A DNA stretch of 64,000 nucleotides from Thaumasiovibrio occultus. Its GTDB lineage: Bacteria > Pseudomonadota > Gammaproteobacteria > Enterobacterales > Vibrionaceae. The notes beneath the pieces are model-generated. The model saw only the letters and a program-made list of their open reading frames with translations. It was not told the DNA's origin and made no database searches. Of this stretch, positions 4,507 through 49,752 are shown piece after piece (the first letter of the stretch is position 1; every line of letters starts with the position of its first letter). The stretch is taken from positions 310,001 through 374,000 of the forward strand of contig AP023052.1 of the NCBI GenBank assembly GCA_019703815.1, given 5' to 3'. Made by a program: the position numbers and the translations under genes.

Positions 4507-5501
4507 TTATGTTTTTCTACCAATTCTAGGGCGTGGGCCAGTGCTGTCCGAAGACTGCCCATGTCCGCCTGTCCGGTACCAGCAAGATCCAGCGCGGTAC
4601 CATGATCTACAGATGTTCTAATAAAGGGTAAGCCTAACGTAATGTTAACCGATTTACCAAACCCTTTGTATTTCAGTACGGGTAAGCCCTGATCGTGATA
4701 CATCGCGAGAACCGAGTCTGCGTCTTTCAGGTACTTATCTTGGAACAAAGTGTCTGCCGGTAATGGCCCGATCAGATCCATGCCTTCCTGCTCTCGCAAA
4801 TCGTTGAGGGCAGGGGTGATCACATCAATTTCTTCACGACCGAGGCAGCCATCTTCGCCAGCATGGGGGTTAAGCCCACACACGTAGATGCGCGGCGCGG
4901 TAATACCAAATTTGGTGGTGAGATCATGATGAAGAATGCGGATCACGTCTTTTAAGAGCGTGTCAGTGACAGCATCCGAGACCTGCGATAACGGGATGTG
5001 AGTGGTTACTAACGCAACGCGCAGCCCTTCCGTTGCTAGCATCATGACCACTTGTGAGGTGTTTGAGTGATCGGCAAAAAACTCAGTATGACCACTAAAG
5101 GCGACGCCAGCGCGGTTAATCACCCCTTTGTGCACAGGGCCGGTGATCACTGCGGCAAACTCACCGTTCATACAGCCTTCAGCGGCACGAGTGAGGGTCT
5201 CTAATACATACTTCCCGTTGTTTTCATCAAGCGTACCGGTCACGACGGGCGCGGCGACAGGAATATCGTCGACGACAATCACGCCGGCCTGATGAGGGGA
5301 AGGGGGACGTGCCGCCTGATAGGGGCGAGTTTCAATCGACAGCCCCAGCTCCTTGGCGCGCTGTTCTAGCACAGTGCGACTGGCACAGACCACGAGTTCG
5401 TGAGGCCAATCTTGTTGCAACATTGCGAGAACCAGATCTGGTCCTACGCCGGCGGGCTCCCCCGGCGTAATCGCCAATCGTTGACAGTTAGGCATCATCA
5501 T
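4503..5501 (-). CDS. pdxA: 4-hydroxythreonine-4-phosphate dehydrogenase
   Basis: PdxA performs the NAD-dependent oxidation of 4-phosphohydroxy-L-threonine in pyridoxal 5'-phosphate synthesis. The 332-residue protein carries the metal-binding histidines at about 168 (TTHIP), 213 (NPHAG) and 269 (MYHDQG), matching E. coli His166, 211 and 266. The N-terminal [13 protein letters not shown] is conserved. Three ATG codons stand in tandem at the start (5501, 5498, 5495) inside the end of surA, so the exact first residue is uncertain by two codons. Confidence 0.95.
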
Positions 5502-44723: not shown

Positions 44724-45185
44724 TTAACCGGCGTTGCCATTTCCGCTATCTTGCGATTTGCTTTTTTCTTCTGTTTCTTCTGTTTCTTCTGTTTCTTCTG
44801 TTTCTTCTGCTTCCGCATCTTCCGCTCGGCCCCAGCCGGGTTGAATATCTAAGGTGTAATCGAATGCTGTGCGCAAACCAAAGAACAGGAACAAGAAGCC
44901 CCACCACCATGCAAAGGCCGATAAGGCGGGTTTAATTTCACCCCACGCAGTGATGTTAATAATGCCGTACCAAAACAGGCCAATGGAAAGAAAGGGAACG
45001 GCCATTAATATCAGATAGCAGAGCATCATCAGCTTGGTGATAAGGTAGCGGAGCTGTTGATAGACCCACCCTTTTTTACCCCGCTCATAATTGATAAAGC
45101 CAAAACCACAATTTAGCGCCACCAGAAAAACGCACGCTTGTAATGCCGTCCAACCAAGGGCGGCGAGGATCGCTAACCACTGCAT
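44724..45185 (-). CDS. Inner-membrane protein with repeat-encoded acidic tail
   Basis: I do not recognise this 153-residue protein. It has three to four hydrophobic segments (about residues 3-25, 48-75 and 88-103) and a cytoplasmic-looking loop NYERGKKGW. Its C-terminal 35 residues are hydrophilic and dominated by a Glu-Glu-Thr repeat (EETEETEETEETEE), encoded by a 9-bp tandem DNA repeat. I chose the ATG at 45185 (MQWLAILAALGW), which has an AAAGGAGAAC site just upstream. A downstream terminator is not evident. Confidence 0.65.
   Translation of the reverse strand: MQWLAILAALGWTALQACVFLVALNCGFGFINYERGKKGWVYQQLRYLITKLMMLCYLILMAVPFLSIGLFWYGIINITAWGEIKPALSAFAWWWGFLFLFFGLRTAFDYTLDIQPGWGRAEDAEAEETEETEETEETEEKSKSQDSGNGNAG
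44765..44809. repeat. Five copies of a 9-bp tandem repeat
   Basis: TTTCTTCTG occurs five times in tandem without mismatch (45 bp). On the coding minus strand each unit gives Glu-Glu-Thr in phase with the acidic tail of the membrane protein. Loss or gain of units would lengthen or shorten the tail without a frameshift. Confidence 0.9.
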
Positions 45186-45382: not shown

Positions 45383-45416
45383 CTTCACGAACACTTCACG
45401 TTGTCTGTGACACTAT
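45383..45416 (+). promoter_or_regulatory. Candidate response-regulator box and promoter
   Basis: CTTCACG occurs twice with a 4-base spacer (45383-45389 and 45394-45400), an 11-bp period. Ten bases after the second copy lies a -10-like CACTAT (45411-45416), so the repeat would overlap the -35 region. The same arrangement lies before the DUF5666 gene. OmpR/PhoB-family regulators bind such 11-bp direct repeats, and one is encoded nearby, so it is the likely ligand. Confidence 0.55.
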
Positions 45417-45453
45417 GCCTTTCATATTCCATCACGAGACAATAACAATAACA

Positions 45454-46095
45454 ATGAAAAGAATCGTTCTAGCTTTACTCGCCACTTGTTCTTTCTCCAG
45501 CGTGGCATCGCCTTATGTTGCTATTGAGTACGGTATTGGTAGCAGTGATCATGATGTGGAGCCAGTTTTAGACGGTAAACAGCTTAACCCTGAGTTAGAT
45601 GAGGGGATCATGGGCGTCACGTTGGGTTACGCGCTAAGTGATCAATGGGCGTTAGAGCTGGGCTACAGCCAGTTTGATCTTGATGTTGGGAGCAGCCAGC
45701 GTTTACCTAACCAGACGATTGATGGCAAAGATTACATGGTTGAGAAAGAGTGGGACGCCAGCATCAGCGCGAAGCAGCTGAGCATTGCGCCGGTGTACAC
45801 CTATCACCTTAACAACCTATGGCGCGCGAAATTCAAAGCGGGTCTGACCTACACGCAATACGAAGAAAGTAGCCATGTAGGCGAAGAGTATGAGTGGGTA
45901 CTGAACGATGACGTTGAGTTTGATAAAGCGCTGGGCGGTTATAGCAAAACGTCGAATGAATTGGGCGCGTTGGTAGGTGTGGGCGTGGAATATCAACTGC
46001 TGCGCCAAGTGACGATTGGCGCGAACGTAAAATACCAGCTCGATGCGTATTCAAACACCGCATCAGCTAACCTTAGCGCGAGCTACTATTTCTAA
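45454..46095 (+). CDS. Outer-membrane beta-barrel protein
   Basis: This 213-residue protein has a signal peptide (MKRIVLALLATCSFSSVAS) and reads as an eight-stranded OmpA-type barrel: SPYVAIEYGIGSS, GVTLGYALSDQWALELGYSQFDL, LSIAPVYTYHLNNLWRAKFKAGLTYT, ending SANLSASYYF with the terminal Phe needed for Bam recognition. The specific family is not clear. It is followed within nine bases by a YgiW-type gene and preceded by the candidate response-regulator box, so it is probably induced by the nearby two-component system. I chose the start that yields the signal peptide. Confidence 0.75.
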   Translation: MKRIVLALLATCSFSSVASPYVAIEYGIGSSDHDVEPVLDGKQLNPELDEGIMGVTLGYALSDQWALELGYSQFDLDVGSSQRLPNQTIDGKDYMVEKEWDASISAKQLSIAPVYTYHLNNLWRAKFKAGLTYTQYEESSHVGEEYEWVLNDDVEFDKALGGYSKTSNELGALVGVGVEYQLLRQVTIGANVKYQLDAYSNTASANLSASYYF

Positions 46096-46107
46096 TTGGA
46101 GATCATG

Positions 46108-46449
46108 ATGAAGCGACACACTTTTCTTGCCGCTGCGCTCGTTGTTTGCAGTGCGATGGCGCACGCTGAATTACTTGACGGCAACGTTCAAACCGGTGTG
46201 AGCGATGTGCAAACGGCGCTAGAAGCTACTGACGACAGTTATGTGCTGCTGGAAGGTCATCTAGTGCGTTCGTTGGGCGATGAAATGTACGTGTTTAAAG
46301 ACGCGAGCGGCGAAATGCAGGTCGAGATCGAGCCGGAAGTATGGCGCGGTCTTGATGTCACTACGACCGATCGCGTCGCACTGTACGGCGAGATTGATCG
46401 CGATATGTTCAGCACCACATTGGAAGTTGAGCAGATCAGTAAGCGATAG
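46108..46449 (+). CDS. YgiW/YdeI family periplasmic OB-fold (BOF) protein
   Basis: This 113-residue protein has a signal peptide ending in AHA and the bacterial OB-fold pattern of the BOF family: YVLLEGHLVRSLGDEMYVFKD, GEMQVEIEPEVW and DRVALYGEIDRD. E. coli YgiW and YdeI contribute to resistance to stress and antimicrobial peptides, and ygiW lies beside qseBC there; here too a two-component system is adjacent. GGAG lies six bases before the ATG at 46108 and three before that at 46105, so the first residue is uncertain by one. It forms an operon with the preceding barrel gene. Confidence 0.82.
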   Translation: MKRHTFLAAALVVCSAMAHAELLDGNVQTGVSDVQTALEATDDSYVLLEGHLVRSLGDEMYVFKDASGEMQVEIEPEVWRGLDVTTTDRVALYGEIDRDMFSTTLEVEQISKR

Positions 46450-46474
46450 TGCAGTCGTGGTGAATGAATATAAG

Positions 46475-46501
46475 CAGGCGAGGGGAAACCTCGCCTGTTT
46501 T
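46475..46501 (+). terminator. Terminator of the barrel-BOF operon
   Basis: A perfect 9-bp stem CAGGCGAGG / CCTCGCCTG with a GGAAA loop is followed by TTTT. It separates the operon from the convergent kinase gene. Confidence 0.78.
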
Positions 46502-46504
46502 GCG

Positions 46505-47791
46505 TTATACGTGATCATCTCCGGCAGACACTGCTTCGCCTGCGGGATTCGCGGCCGTAAAATCGATGCTCGCGATAAACGTCTGCGCGTTTTTCTCGGT
46601 GATAAAGTGCCATCCCATCCGGGTACAAATGCGCTCGACAATCACCAAACCACAGCCGTAGCCGGCATTGAAGGTGTCATTACCATCGTGACGATTGGTG
46701 ATCGTCAGCAAGGTCTCCTCCAAGGTGATCGCGATATCGCCAATACTGTAGCTAAAGGCGTTTTTGATCAGATTGTTGATCAAAATCGCGATAAAGCTTT
46801 CCGGTGCCCACACTGAGCCTGGTTCAATCAGCGTTAACTGATACGTCGCATCTTGCTTGGCAAACAGCGGACTGAGCAATGAAAGCTGAGCTTCAACACT
46901 CTCGGCGAGCGCGTGTTGGGCACAGTGCTGAGTTTCAATTTCGGCCTTACCCAGCAGCAAGAATGCTTCGGTGAGGACGGTCATCTCTTGAGTGGCGCTT
47001 TCGATGCGCTGCACCGCTTTTTGCGCTAAACGCGGTTGATCTGGAATACGCTCCAGCAGCTCCGTCGAGCCTTGGATCACCATGATCGGCGTGCGCAGCT
47101 CGTGGGAGGCAAAGCGGCTAAACTCTTTTTCCCTCTGGAAAAACAATGCGATATCCACTTTGCTGTCGAGCAGGGCCTGTTCAATTTGGCGCGTTTCACT
47201 AAACCGTGTTTCGACCTCAAACATCGCCGCGTCTGGTGCCATATGATGGATCTTTTTCTCTATGATGCTCAGCGGCTTGGACAAGATCCGCACCATATAA
47301 ATGCCATAGGCCAGCATTAGGAGCGAGAGCAACCCACCCAGCGCAAACGTAAACTGGTGCAGTGAGCTTTCGTAATCATCCAAATAATCGTCGGAGTCAT
47401 CTTGGAAGACGATATACATCAGCCCTTTGCCAGAGGGATGCGCAAACACCACAAAGTGTTTATCTTCGGTGCCTAACAATTTTTCATAAAAACCCGGTTG
47501 GTCGAATTTAAGCAGCCAGTCTGGAGTTTTCGATTCACTCCAAAAGGAGTCAAATTCCAACGGGTTGGGTTTAGGCGCATCCCAAGCTTGTTGAGCAAAG
47601 TTGGTGCGGTAAAGCTCCGCTTCAGTATCGAGCCAGTGGTGCAAACTCAGCACTTCAAACTTGTTTTCAGCCACATAGATCAGTGACCAGAACAAGGTGA
47701 ACATCACCAGAGTAATTATGCCAAAACTCCAGCGAACACGACGGTAAATGCTGGGAAAGTGCTTATGCTTTGAGTCGGTAGCCTTGTCCAT
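46505..47791 (-). CDS. Sensor histidine kinase
   Basis: This 428-residue kinase has two membrane spans (about residues 22-41 and 147-169) around a periplasmic sensor of roughly 105 residues, then the dimerisation domain with the phospho-acceptor His230 in FASHELRTPI and an ATPase domain with the N box ILINNLIKNAFSYS (Asn344). The G boxes are short: HDGND and GYGCGLVIV. The protein ends in a hydrophilic tail. Its start overlaps the response-regulator gene by 29 bases, so the two are coupled. The stimulus is unknown. The neighbouring envelope genes suggest an envelope or cationic-stress sensor like QseC, PmrB or VprB, which is inference. Confidence 0.87.
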   Translation of the reverse strand: MDKATDSKHKHFPSIYRRVRWSFGIITLVMFTLFWSLIYVAENKFEVLSLHHWLDTEAELYRTNFAQQAWDAPKPNPLEFDSFWSESKTPDWLLKFDQPGFYEKLLGTEDKHFVVFAHPSGKGLMYIVFQDDSDDYLDDYESSLHQFTFALGGLLSLLMLAYGIYMVRILSKPLSIIEKKIHHMAPDAAMFEVETRFSETRQIEQALLDSKVDIALFFQREKEFSRFASHELRTPIMVIQGSTELLERIPDQPRLAQKAVQRIESATQEMTVLTEAFLLLGKAEIETQHCAQHALAESVEAQLSLLSPLFAKQDATYQLTLIEPGSVWAPESFIAILINNLIKNAFSYSIGDIAITLEETLLTITNRHDGNDTFNAGYGCGLVIVERICTRMGWHFITEKNAQTFIASIDFTAANPAGEAVSAGDDHV

Positions 47792-48431
47792 GAACAGTCT
47801 CTAGTCGTGAGTCAGTAAACCCTTTGTCGAGCGCGGTGCGCAGGGCGTAAATATGGCTGCGTAGGGCATCGCTGCTCGGCGGCTCGTCGCCCCATAAGTG
47901 CTCCGTGACTTCTTGGCGCGAAATCGTAGCCGGGGCGCGTTTCAATAACAGCTTGAGTATCTCGGTTTGAATCCGGCTCAGTTTTAGCGGGGTGTCGGCA
48001 CGGGTTGCTTTGCCGGTACTGATATCAAGGAGGATATCGGCAAACTGCAACTTACCGATGTCTTGGCGCGGACCGCGATTGGCTAACGCTCTGATCCGTA
48101 AACATAACTCCTGCATTGCAAACGGTTTGAGCAGGTAATCATCTCCGCCAGCAGTGAAGGCGTCGACTTTGTCATCCAAGGTATCTTTGGCGGTCAGAAA
48201 CAAAATCGGGGTACTGCAATACAGCTCTTCGCGTAGGCGTTTTACCGCGTTGATACCATCAAGTTTGGGCATCATGATGTCCATAATGATGACATCAAAA
48301 TGGTCTTGTGCGACTAATTGGAGCGCGGCTTCACCGTGGTAGGCGCAGTCGACCGTCATGCCTTCCAGTTCAAGATAATCCGTAATGGTTTCTGCGACAT
48401 TATGGTTATCGTCAACAACGAGTATTTTCAT
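47763..48431 (-). CDS. OmpR-family response regulator
   Basis: This 222-residue regulator has a receiver domain with phospho-acceptor Asp51 (IIMDIMMPKLDG), acidic pair Asp7-Asp8, Thr80 and Lys102, and a C-terminal winged helix (HLWGDEPPSSDALRSHIYALRTALDK, HGQGYRLKA) of the OmpR/PhoB type. I chose the ATG at 48431 (MKILVVDDN); the frame is open 12 residues upstream. It diverges from the DUF5666 lipoprotein gene across 100 bases that contain the same 11-bp-period repeat found before the barrel-BOF operon. I infer that it activates both. Confidence 0.88.
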   Translation of the reverse strand: MKILVVDDNHNVAETITDYLELEGMTVDCAYHGEAALQLVAQDHFDVIIMDIMMPKLDGINAVKRLREELYCSTPILFLTAKDTLDDKVDAFTAGGDDYLLKPFAMQELCLRIRALANRGPRQDIGKLQFADILLDISTGKATRADTPLKLSRIQTEILKLLLKRAPATISRQEVTEHLWGDEPPSSDALRSHIYALRTALDKGFTDSRLETVHGQGYRLKA

Positions 48432-48455
48432 CTTGTTGGTCTTTCCGTCATTTTG

Positions 48456-48489
48456 CTTCACGTTCACTTCACGCTTAGCGCATTACGAT
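48456..48489 (+). promoter_or_regulatory. Second candidate response-regulator box
   Basis: CTTCACG is repeated at 48456-48462 and 48467-48473 with a 4-base spacer, the same 11-bp period as upstream of the barrel-BOF operon. Ten bases later lies a -10-like TACGAT (48484-48489), again at the same distance. The box lies between the response-regulator gene and the DUF5666 gene and may act on both. Confidence 0.58.
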
Positions 48490-48531: not shown

Positions 48532-49752
48532 ATGAAAAAAGTATTACTGCTCTCTGCCATTTCGATGATGTTAACCGGCTGTGGTGGCTCAAGTGACAGC
48601 GCAAATACCGGTGGCGGCACAACACCGATCACGCCCGCAGATATCGTCAGCGGTGCGATTGACGCGGTGAACAGCGACGGCACCATTGTGGTGAACGGCA
48701 ACACTTACCCAGTTGGTAATGTGGCGCTTAATGGCACTGAGCTTGCTGAAGATGTGTTGGCGAAAAACATGACAGTGACATTGCGTTCAACTTCGGCTCG
48801 CAGCGCTGCGGTTAACGTTCAGCTAGAGCCGACCATGACCGGTACGATCACCGCGATCAATGGCAACAGTTTTGAGATCAATGGCGTTACCCTAAGCTTT
48901 GCTGGGCTATCGGGAGTCGAGGTTGGCGATTGGGTATTGGTTTCGTCGCTGCCTACCGCCAATGCCGGTTATAAAGTGCTGTCGGTGGTGAAATTGGATG
49001 TAGAAGTTGAGTATCCGAGCCTTGCGACTTACTTTGAGTTGGAAGGACGTATCGCCAGCGTCAATGCCAACGATAACAGCCTAGTGTTGGGCTCTAACAT
49101 CCATGTTGATTACAGTGGGGCGCACTCGGTACCGTCACCGTTACAACCGGGTCAATGGATTGAAGTTGAAGGTCGATATGAAGTTGATCGCTTTGTCGCC
49201 ACGGAGATCGAACTGGATGGCTATGACGATGATAACGATGATCTTAACTCAGAAATCGAAGGCATAGTGACTTCAGTTGAAGACGCTGATACCGGACTGC
49301 CAAGTTTTAGTCTGAACTATCGTGGCAGCTTCGCTACCGATAGCGCCACGTGCTACCGTCAAGACGATGCCAATCATTGTGATGCGAGCTTAAAATCACA
49401 GCTGAATTTGGGCGCAGAAGTGGAAGTGATCTCAACGCTTAAAGCGGGTCGCCGCGTTGCCACGCTAGTCGAGTTTGAAGACCTTGATAGCGGCTGGCAG
49501 GGACGTGAGTTTGAGTGTGAAGGTATGCCCTCAAATGTGGTTGTCGACGTTGATACCAACACCGCCACCTTTGCGATGAGTGACTGTGAAGATGCAAACG
49601 AGCACCCACTGCCGATTGAGCGTGTGTATACCGATGCCATGACGCGCTTTGACGGTATTGATATCGATTACTTAGCCGGTAGTCACGTTGAGGTGGAAGG
49701 TGTGTTGATTGGCGAGCAATACATCGCGCGCGAAATTGAACTCGACGATTAA
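48532..49752 (+). CDS. DUF5666 lipoprotein
   Basis: This 406-residue protein begins with a lipoprotein signal peptide (MKKVLLLSAISMMLTGC, lipidation at Cys17) and a Gly/Ser/Thr-rich linker. The rest consists of several repeated small beta domains of the DUF5666 type, each with the pattern of a Gly-Xaa-Ile or Leu start and a VEVEG-like strand (MTGTITAINGNSFEINGV, YFELEGRIASVNANDNSLVLG, WIEVEGRYEVDRFVATEIEL, HVEVEGVLIGEQYIAREIEL). Such OB-like repeats suggest a binding or scaffold role in the periplasm. Function is unknown. The GGAG site at 48522-48525 fits the start. Confidence 0.78.
   Translation: MKKVLLLSAISMMLTGCGGSSDSANTGGGTTPITPADIVSGAIDAVNSDGTIVVNGNTYPVGNVALNGTELAEDVLAKNMTVTLRSTSARSAAVNVQLEPTMTGTITAINGNSFEINGVTLSFAGLSGVEVGDWVLVSSLPTANAGYKVLSVVKLDVEVEYPSLATYFELEGRIASVNANDNSLVLGSNIHVDYSGAHSVPSPLQPGQWIEVEGRYEVDRFVATEIELDGYDDDNDDLNSEIEGIVTSVEDADTGLPSFSLNYRGSFATDSATCYRQDDANHCDASLKSQLNLGAEVEVISTLKAGRRVATLVEFEDLDSGWQGREFECEGMPSNVVVDVDTNTATFAMSDCEDANEHPLPIERVYTDAMTRFDGIDIDYLAGSHVEVEGVLIGEQYIAREIELDD

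What the first reader, a model, noticed from the sequence alone, without database searches (positions are those of the whole stretch)
45383..48489. Shared 11-bp-period repeat links a two-component system to a barrel-BOF operon and a DUF5666 lipoprotein
CTTCACG-N4-CTTCACG occurs at 45383-45400 and 48456-48473, each with a -10-like hexamer starting after a 10-base gap (CACTAT and TACGAT). One copy precedes a beta-barrel plus YgiW-type OB-fold operon, the other lies between the OmpR-family regulator and a DUF5666 lipoprotein. OmpR/PhoB-family regulators bind 11-bp direct repeats overlapping the -35 region. I infer one regulon, an envelope-protection module made of sensor, regulator, barrel, OB-fold protein and DUF5666 repeats.
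Basis: partly seen in the sequence, partly recalled or inferred. Interest (0 to 1): 0.62.

Follow-up and report, generated by a model that had tools for sequence, protein, structure and literature searches.

The report
Two-component system's box marks envelope regulon
The same short repeated DNA box sits before two gene groups beside a bacterial sensor-regulator pair, and because relatives that carry this pair keep the box before the same outer-envelope genes even when these lie elsewhere in the genome, it is very probably the regulator's switch for a small envelope-defence gene set that has not been tested in the laboratory.

Summary
CTTCACG-N4-CTTCACG occurs at 45383-45400 and 48456-48473, each with a -10-like hexamer after exactly 10 bases; these are the only exact copies in the 4.5-Mb genome.

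The regulon inference holds in comparative tests. Among 197 genomes of the family the strict box-plus-hexamer pattern occurs in 68 and an orthologue of this response regulator (RR) in 67; 62 have both (Fisher p = 7e-38). Of 90 strict sites, 58 lie just upstream of the RR, 16 lead AcfA-type barrel genes and 7 lead BOF genes. Barrel promoters have the box in 35 of 38 RR-positive and 0 of 8 RR-negative cases (corrected as stated in the report). In Marinomonas and Colwellia, barrel, BOF, RR and kinase genes lie side by side.

Most likely mechanism: the phosphorylated OmpR-family RR binds the 11-bp direct repeat over the -35 region and activates these promoters. The effectors resemble the SipA-OmpA antimicrobial-peptide module of V. 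cholerae; the DUF5666 lipoprotein is predicted to be a chain of OB folds. It is not DbfQRS, of which this genome has a separate look-alike. Binding, signal and function are untested.

The parts
45383..45400 (+). Box 1: CTTCACG-N4-CTTCACG direct repeat, 11-bp period, before the barrel-BOF operon
   Evidence: Exact match; orthologous barrel promoters have the box in 35 of 38 RR-positive cases (corrected)
45411..45416 (+). -10-like hexamer CACTAT, 10 bases after box 1
   Evidence: Read; CANNNT at the same place in other barrel promoters, e.g. CACAAT, CAAAAT, CATAAT
45454..46095 (+). AcfA-family outer-membrane beta-barrel, 213 aa
   Evidence: NF033908 255.6 bits, cut-off 100; PF13505. Start codon chosen by me; the listed ORF begins at 45415
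46108..46449 (+). BOF (YgiW/NirD-type) periplasmic OB-fold protein, 113 aa, second gene of the operon
   Evidence: PF04076 84.2 bits; NF033674 104.6 bits, cut-off 35
46505..47791 (-). Sensor histidine kinase, 428 aa, acidic patch before the second membrane helix
   Evidence: HisKA PF00512; D134, D135, L137, D138, E141 invariant in 23 of 23 orthologues
47763..48431 (-). OmpR-family response regulator, 222 aa; its end overlaps the start of the kinase gene
   Evidence: PF00072 and PF00486; D51 invariant in 10 of 10 orthologues
48456..48473 (+). Box 2: CTTCACG-N4-CTTCACG between the regulator and the DUF5666 gene
   Evidence: Exact match; box in 10 of 10 unnamed and 22 of 26 named orthologous gaps
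48484..48489 (+). -10-like hexamer TACGAT, 10 bases after box 2; with the next base TANNNTA, readable on both strands
   Evidence: Read; TANNNTA in 27 of 33 DUF5666-side promoters against 11 of 26 others
48532..49752 (+). DUF5666 lipoprotein, 406 aa, predicted chain of OB folds
   Evidence: PF18914; Cys17 invariant in 23 of 23; model pLDDT 85.3; OB-fold matches

Best explanation
The window holds a dedicated two-component regulon. The kinase-regulator pair (46505-48431) controls two promoters, that of the divergent DUF5666 lipoprotein and that of the barrel-BOF operon, through CTTCAC[GA]-N4-CTTCAC[GA]. Two regulator molecules would bind head-to-tail to the 11-bp repeat, covering the -35 region, and recruit RNA polymerase to a -10 hexamer fixed 10 bases downstream. 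The same box lies about 25 bases before the regulator's own start codon, beside a hexamer readable on both strands, so binding might also cover the regulator's own transcription start and give feedback. The products are a periplasmic BOF protein, its operon-mate AcfA-type barrel and a lipid-anchored chain of OB folds. The most likely job is defence of the periplasm and outer membrane against cationic peptides or similar damage, as for SipA-OmpA of V. cholerae, with the kinase's conserved acidic patch as candidate detector. Shown by computation: box, fixed spacing, conservation, link to the regulator. Inferred: binding, activation, feedback, signal, function.
For: Only two exact boxes in the genome, both here. 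In 10 of 10 unnamed orthologous loci and 22 of 26 named ones the box is in the gap next to the regulator. Strict pattern and regulator co-occur, 62/6/5/124, p = 7e-38. 81 of 90 strict sites lie upstream of the regulator (58), a barrel (16) or a BOF gene (7). Barrel promoters: 35 of 38 RR-positive against 0 of 8 RR-negative (corrected). BOF promoters in RR-negative genomes: 0 of 42. Barrel-BOF-RR-kinase clusters in Marinomonas and Colwellia, with a box in front. TANNNT at gap 10 in 49 of 59 promoters, 0-6 at other gaps. Precedent for a two-component system driving a peptide-binding BOF protein: PMC5636140, PMC6370654 (abstracts and passages).
Against: No binding or expression data. Genome counts are not corrected for kinship. 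G031 has an exact box before BOF but no regulator by my cut-off; two RR-negative genomes (G129, G211) have a strict box before a DUF535 gene. G103 has the regulator but no box was seen before regulator or BOF in the 5.5 kb fetched. 44 of 51 further BOF genes in RR-positive genomes lack the box, though some are second genes behind a barrel that has it. In Vibrio sp. Hep-1b-8 (L115) the clustered BOF and barrel have no good box of their own (4 and 3 mismatches). In V. cholerae a sipA mutant is sensitive to peptides only in the Classical biotype (PMC6370654), so the protective role may be modest.
Confidence: 0.8

Rival explanations
1. Another OmpR-family regulator, for example the PepSY-linked DbfR-like one, binds the box, and this two-component system is only a co-inherited neighbour or itself a target.
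For: G031 has the box before BOF without this regulator. OmpR-family boxes are similar to each other: the PepSY-linked locus has a related repeat (TTCAT-N6-TTCAT) at the same spacing.
Against: The box follows this regulator across 197 genomes (p = 7e-38) and is absent from 42 of 42 BOF promoters of RR-negative genomes examined; the PepSY-linked locus of this genome has a different half-site.
Confidence: 0.1
2. The regulator represses rather than activates these promoters: the box overlaps the -35 region and bound regulator blocks polymerase.
For: The box covers the place of a -35 hexamer; repression would also give a fixed arrangement.
Against: No conserved -35 consensus outside the box and a strictly fixed 10-base gap to the -10 in 49 of 59 promoters are what an activator needs; the V. 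cholerae analogue is induced through its system (PMC5636140, passages).
Confidence: 0.08
3. The repeat is a chance pair or a recent local duplication.
For: Two short copies 3 kb apart in one genome, chosen after the fact.
Against: About 0.036 exact copies expected genome-wide; conserved across genera and at distant loci, with little shared information in the flanks.
Confidence: 0.01

Closest known systems
VC1638-VC1639 (DbfRS, with DbfQ) of Vibrio cholerae and its target SipA (VCA0732)
   Same: OmpR-type two-component system needed for expression of a periplasmic BOF protein; SipA binds antimicrobial peptides and OmpA (PMC5636140, PMC6370654; abstracts and passages seen)
   Different: No PepSY gene beside the window system; DUF5666 and a barrel belong to its set; this genome has a separate PepSY-linked two-component locus whose regulator is 32% identical and whose promoter repeat is TTCAT-type. 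VC1638 itself was not available for comparison
QseBC (PreAB) and visP/ygiW of Salmonella
   Same: An adjacent two-component system regulates a BOF gene (stated in PMC5636140, passage seen)
   Different: Regulator and kinase are far below the QseB and QseC cut-offs (115.6 of 345 and 46.3 of 475 bits); no DUF5666 or barrel in that unit (recalled)
PmrA/BasR and PhoB-type direct-repeat promoters
   Same: Direct repeat with 11-bp period over the -35, close to the -10 (family knowledge, recalled; spacing measured)
   Different: Half-site CTTCAC[GA] differs from the CTTAA-type half-site of PmrA (recalled); the regulator is below the PmrA cut-off (149.3 of 330 bits)
CarRS (VprAB) of Vibrio
   Same: Vibrio two-component system of polymyxin response (PMC5636140, passages; PMC10433830, listing only)
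   Different: Known output is almEFG lipid A modification; not compared by sequence here

Membership tests
OmpR/PhoB-family response regulator with direct-repeat promoters | Receiver domain plus winged-helix Trans_reg_C domain | tested here: met
   PF00072 108.6 bits and PF00486 60.6 bits, both above cut-off
OmpR/PhoB-family response regulator with direct-repeat promoters | Direct repeat of 11-bp period at a fixed place over the -35 region of target promoters | tested here: met
   TANNNT at gap 10 in 49 of 59 promoters (44 of 54 without five picked by the pattern itself); other gaps 0-6
OmpR/PhoB-family response regulator with direct-repeat promoters | Regulator binds the repeat when phosphorylated | not testable with these tools
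   Needs biochemistry; co-occurrence only
DbfQRS / VC1638-39 | PepSY protein (DbfQ) encoded next to the system | tested here: not met
   PepSY search of the own genome hits contig C2 only, at two loci, none in the window on C1; no such gene among the window neighbours scanned
DbfQRS / VC1638-39 | Closest sequence match of the regulator is VC1638 | not tested
   No V. cholerae record was obtained; the genome's own PepSY-linked regulator is 32% identical
QseBC | NCBIfam equivalog cut-offs for QseB and QseC | tested here: not met
   115.6 of 345 and 46.3 of 475 bits
PmrAB | NCBIfam equivalog cut-offs for PmrA and PmrB | tested here: not met
   149.3 of 330 and 41.4 of 314 bits
AcfA-family barrel | NF033908 above cut-off | tested here: met
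   255.6 bits, cut-off 100
BOF / YgiW stress-tolerance family | PF04076 and NF033674 above cut-off | tested here: met
   84.2 of 25.8 and 104.6 of 35 bits; the narrower TIGR00156 is below its cut-off, 76.6 of 108.15
DUF5666 lipoprotein as OB-fold protein | DUF5666 domain and lipobox cysteine | tested here: met
   PF18914 79.7 bits; Cys17 invariant in 23 of 23
DUF5666 lipoprotein as OB-fold protein | OB fold in every domain | tested here: inconclusive
   Best matches are OB proteins: bS1 (E 3e-9), RPA, CusF, PriB at Z 8.2-9.1 over 57-83 residues. Z is middling, overall TM-scores are low, and the domains were not searched one by one

The most novel reading that the evidence does not exclude
A dedicated peptide-trapping relay under one small regulon: a lipid-anchored chain of OB folds (DUF5666) and a soluble OB protein (BOF) hand cationic peptides to a co-expressed AcfA-type barrel, with an acidic-patch kinase as sensor. 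It runs beside a related PepSY-linked system that controls other BOF copies through a slightly different repeat (TTCAT instead of TTCACG), so that two regulators have divided one effector family between them.
Probability: 0.22. Interest if true: 0.68.

Novelty: new member of a known kind. Interest (0 to 1): 0.5.

Why it matters
It gives a two-component system, for which I found no description in the papers searched, a predicted regulon with a sharp, searchable box, conserved in Vibrio, Photobacterium, Aliivibrio, Shewanella and further genera. It places DUF5666 proteins in a concrete setting with BOF and a barrel. And it offers a test case for the SipA-OmpA model of peptide handling, because here a barrel is encoded next to BOF and shares its promoter.

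Tried and rejected
Considered and rejected: (a) chance repeat. (b) Filing the system as QseBC or PmrAB: equivalog cut-offs not reached. CarRS was not compared. (c) The window system as DbfQRS itself: no PepSY neighbour, separate PepSY-linked locus. (d) A wider regulon in this genome: with one mismatch allowed in the box-plus-hexamer pattern, four sites appear beyond the two known (reversed control 1); two are inside genes and two have no ORF of 100 codons or more starting within 400 bases downstream on their strand. The two one-mismatch sites lie inside ORFs.

Led nowhere or weak: the DbfQ paper holds no binding motif by a term search. CTTCACG with Vibrio gave 225 papers, of which 10 were seen as listings, none on this subject by title. 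The kinase model (pTM 0.53) was not searched for its sensor fold. The regulator's own promoter gave only the TANNNTA hint (27 of 33 against 11 of 26, p = 0.0025), weak because the sequences are related. One region (G146) was fetched on the wrong side of the gene; its exact box is known.
Full report
OBSERVATION. They are the only exact copies in the 4,502,138-base genome; there are 2 one-mismatch and 37 two-mismatch sites, against 31 for the reversed control at up to 2 mismatches. About 0.036 exact sites were expected, a post hoc figure.

FIRST CONSERVATION TEST. A search of 61 genomes with the regulator gave 10, the window's own included, with a close orthologue (60-70% identity for the nine others); the next hits are at about 45% or less. 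In all 10 a lipoprotein gene lies divergent to the regulator; it is DUF5666-like in the nine others by BLAST. In all 10 the core TTCACG-N5-TTCAC, with at most one mismatch, lies in the gap, followed by TANNNT after exactly 10 bases. The barrel was found in 8 of the 10 genomes, and all 8 have the box before it, one with a mismatch. In the seven other than the window's genome, the barrel lies on another contig than the regulator (several are drafts, so true distance is unknown). Single BOF genes in G014 and G007 also have the box.

NAMED ORTHOLOGUES. A scan of named genomes returned 79 loci, of which 26 (L112-L136, L147; 54-78% identity) are close orthologues; the other 53 (31-42%) were not used. 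The 26 come from Vibrio, Photobacterium, Aliivibrio, Shewanella, Agarivorans, Marinomonas, Colwellia, Rheinheimera and one 'Vibrionales bacterium'. In 22 of 26 the box lies 7-31 bases from the regulator start (19 exact core, 2 with one mismatch, 1 with two). The four without it (S. waksmanii, Agarivorans, Marinomonas, Colwellia) have no DUF5666 gene there but have BOF or barrel-BOF genes next to the system, with the box before those: exact before the Marinomonas barrel and before one BOF gene each of S. waksmanii and Agarivorans, one mismatch before their other BOF gene, two mismatches in Colwellia. Vibrio sp. Hep-1b-8 has regulator, DUF5666, BOF and barrel in one cluster, where BOF and barrel have no good box of their own. 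Vibrio sp. AND4 keeps the box with one mismatch, but no DUF5666 gene was found beside it.

FAMILY-WIDE TEST. The strict pattern TTCACGNNNNYTTCAC-N11-TANNNT was searched in 197 genomes drawn from the family: 90 sites in 68 genomes; the reversed control found 6 sites. The regulator (E <= 1e-70) is in 67 of 197. Both: 62; pattern only: 6; regulator only: 5; neither: 124; Fisher p = 7e-38 (kinship not corrected for). The window's own barrel box is not a strict site, because its hexamer is CACTAT. Of the 90 sites, 58 lie within 300 bases upstream of the regulator (the script did not enforce strand, and I did not check each of them for a DUF5666 gene). Of the other 32, 16 lead barrels, 7 lead BOF genes, 5 lead one type of gene that is DUF535 in the copy tested (PF04393, E 1e-75; 3 RR-positive and 2 RR-negative genomes), and 4 lie elsewhere. 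The six RR-negative sites are one BOF (G031), two DUF535 and three others. Of the five regulator-only genomes, three (G100, G153, G192) have a box that just fails the strict pattern, G103 has none in the stretch fetched, and in G116 the contig ends 43 bases before the regulator.

PROMOTER-LEVEL CONTROLS. Barrels: one search listed 46 matches in 45 genomes. My script called a box (up to 2 mismatches and all three points of the hexamer) in 32 of 38 RR-positive and 0 of 8 RR-negative genes (p = 1.2e-5). Three of the six RR-positive failures do have an exact box: G109 and G194 with GATAAT and G146, for which I fetched the wrong stretch. That makes 35 of 38 against 0 of 8 (p = 6e-7). The other three (G090, G181, G077) and four of the eight RR-negative genes are weak matches (E above 1e-35); without these it is 35 of 35 against 0 of 4. 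BOF: 0 of 42 BOF promoters in 27 RR-negative genomes have a box with at most one mismatch and a hexamer; G031 had been left out of this list because its box was already known. In RR-positive genomes 7 of 51 BOF genes not looked at before have it. Some of the 44 misses are second genes behind a barrel that has the box (G149, G195, G198, G213, G215). So many BOF copies are outside this regulon.

ARCHITECTURE. For 59 distinct promoters picked by the box core, TANNNT lies at gap 10 in 49; gaps 4-9 and 11-17 give 0 to 6. Information content exceeds 1 bit only in the half-sites and at T, A and T of the hexamer. Five of the 59 (L226, L229, L234, L240, L244) had been found with the strict pattern and are biased; without them it is 44 of 54. 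Some others (L246, L249, L250) were taken in because the strict pattern had failed there. A -35 hexamer at the usual 17-base distance would fall inside the box, as expected for an activator of this family (recalled). DUF5666-side promoters tend to TANNNTA (27 of 33 against 11 of 26, p = 0.0025), a hexamer readable on both strands; if the regulator uses it, the box lies over its first transcribed bases. This is a hint of feedback, no more.

THE PROTEINS. The kinase sensor is acidic and ends, just before the second membrane helix, in a patch whose D134, D135, L137, D138 and E141 are invariant in 23 of 23; the 41 kinases read have it too. A comparable acidic patch in PhoQ is recalled; I saw only paper listings for it. 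The DUF5666 lipoprotein (Cys17 invariant in 23 of 23) models at pLDDT 85.3. Its best structural matches are largely OB-fold proteins: ribosomal bS1, Unr cold-shock domains and LEF-3 by Foldseek (low overall TM-scores), and RPA, CusF and PriB at Z 8.2-9.1 on second look (middling Z). So two of the three effector types are probably OB-fold proteins.

COMPARISON WITH THE KNOWN. V. cholerae VC1638-39 is required for polymyxin-B induction of the BOF gene vca0732 (PMC5636140; abstract and passages). Its product SipA binds antimicrobial peptides and OmpA; whether VC1638 binds the sipA promoter was not known in 2019 (PMC6370654; abstract and passages). DbfRS with the PepSY protein DbfQ (VC1637) is described in PMC12714742 (passages). 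The window system is a different one: a PepSY-linked locus (match just below the Pfam cut-off) lies on the other contig of this genome, its regulator 32% identical to the window's. That locus has TTCAT-N6-TTCAT with TACACT at the same spacing before its PepSY gene. Repeats TTCA-N7-TTCA with a hexamer at the same place precede 8 of 42 BOF genes of RR-negative genomes (reversed control 0), 6 of them with TTCAT as first half-site; in RR-positive genomes the same loose pattern hits 12 of 51, of which 6 are TTCAC boxes, 2 are TTCAT-type and 4 lie in the end of the preceding barrel gene (positions compared for G072, G084 and G092; G096 judged by its near-identical sequence). I infer that two related systems may each serve their own BOF copies.

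LITERATURE. Searches that showed no description of this regulon: Vibrio + DUF5666 + two-component (0 papers); DUF5666 (4 papers, none on this by title); VCA0732 (4); BOF/YgiW/OB-fold/two-component/Vibrio, four of five terms (5); AcfA with four other terms (1); CTTCACG + Vibrio (225, 10 listed). Most subscription papers are not held.

LIMITS. Conservation shows that the box is selected and tied to this regulator; it does not show binding. Function and signal are by analogy.

Noticed in passing
G000 contig C2, about 351114-351950 (locus L253): A PepSY-linked two-component locus (DbfQRS-like) in the same genome, with TTCAT-N6-TTCAT and TACACT at the same spacing before the PepSY gene.
   Followed up: partly
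L238, L239, L241, L243, L245 (G194, G211, G129, G123, G109): A strict box about 94 bases before a DUF535 gene (Pfam run on L238 only) in five genomes, two of which lack the regulator. DUF535 includes VirK/YbjX-type proteins (recalled).
   Followed up: partly
L224 (G018 contig C47, 5357-5389): A strict box before a small lipoprotein-like gene of unknown function in an Aliivibrio genome; a possible private regulon member.
   Followed up: no
L114 (Vibrio sp. AND4), near 4960-5000: The box and its hexamer remain with one mismatch although no DUF5666 gene follows; looks like a leftover after gene loss.
   Followed up: partly
L227 (G031 contig C34, 183811-183843): Exact box before BOF in a genome without this regulator by the cut-off used.
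   Followed up: no
L122 2950-3633 (Photobacterium aquae): A second, shorter DUF5666-like lipoprotein gene directly after the first, without a box of its own.
   Followed up: no
window 44760-44815: A repeated TTCTGTTTC stretch (reads EET repeats on the minus strand) at the end of the ORF 44724-45185; possible variable repeat.
   Followed up: no
window about 46475-46503: An inverted repeat (GGCGAGG...CCTCGCC followed by T's) between the convergent BOF and kinase genes; looks like a shared terminator.
   Followed up: no
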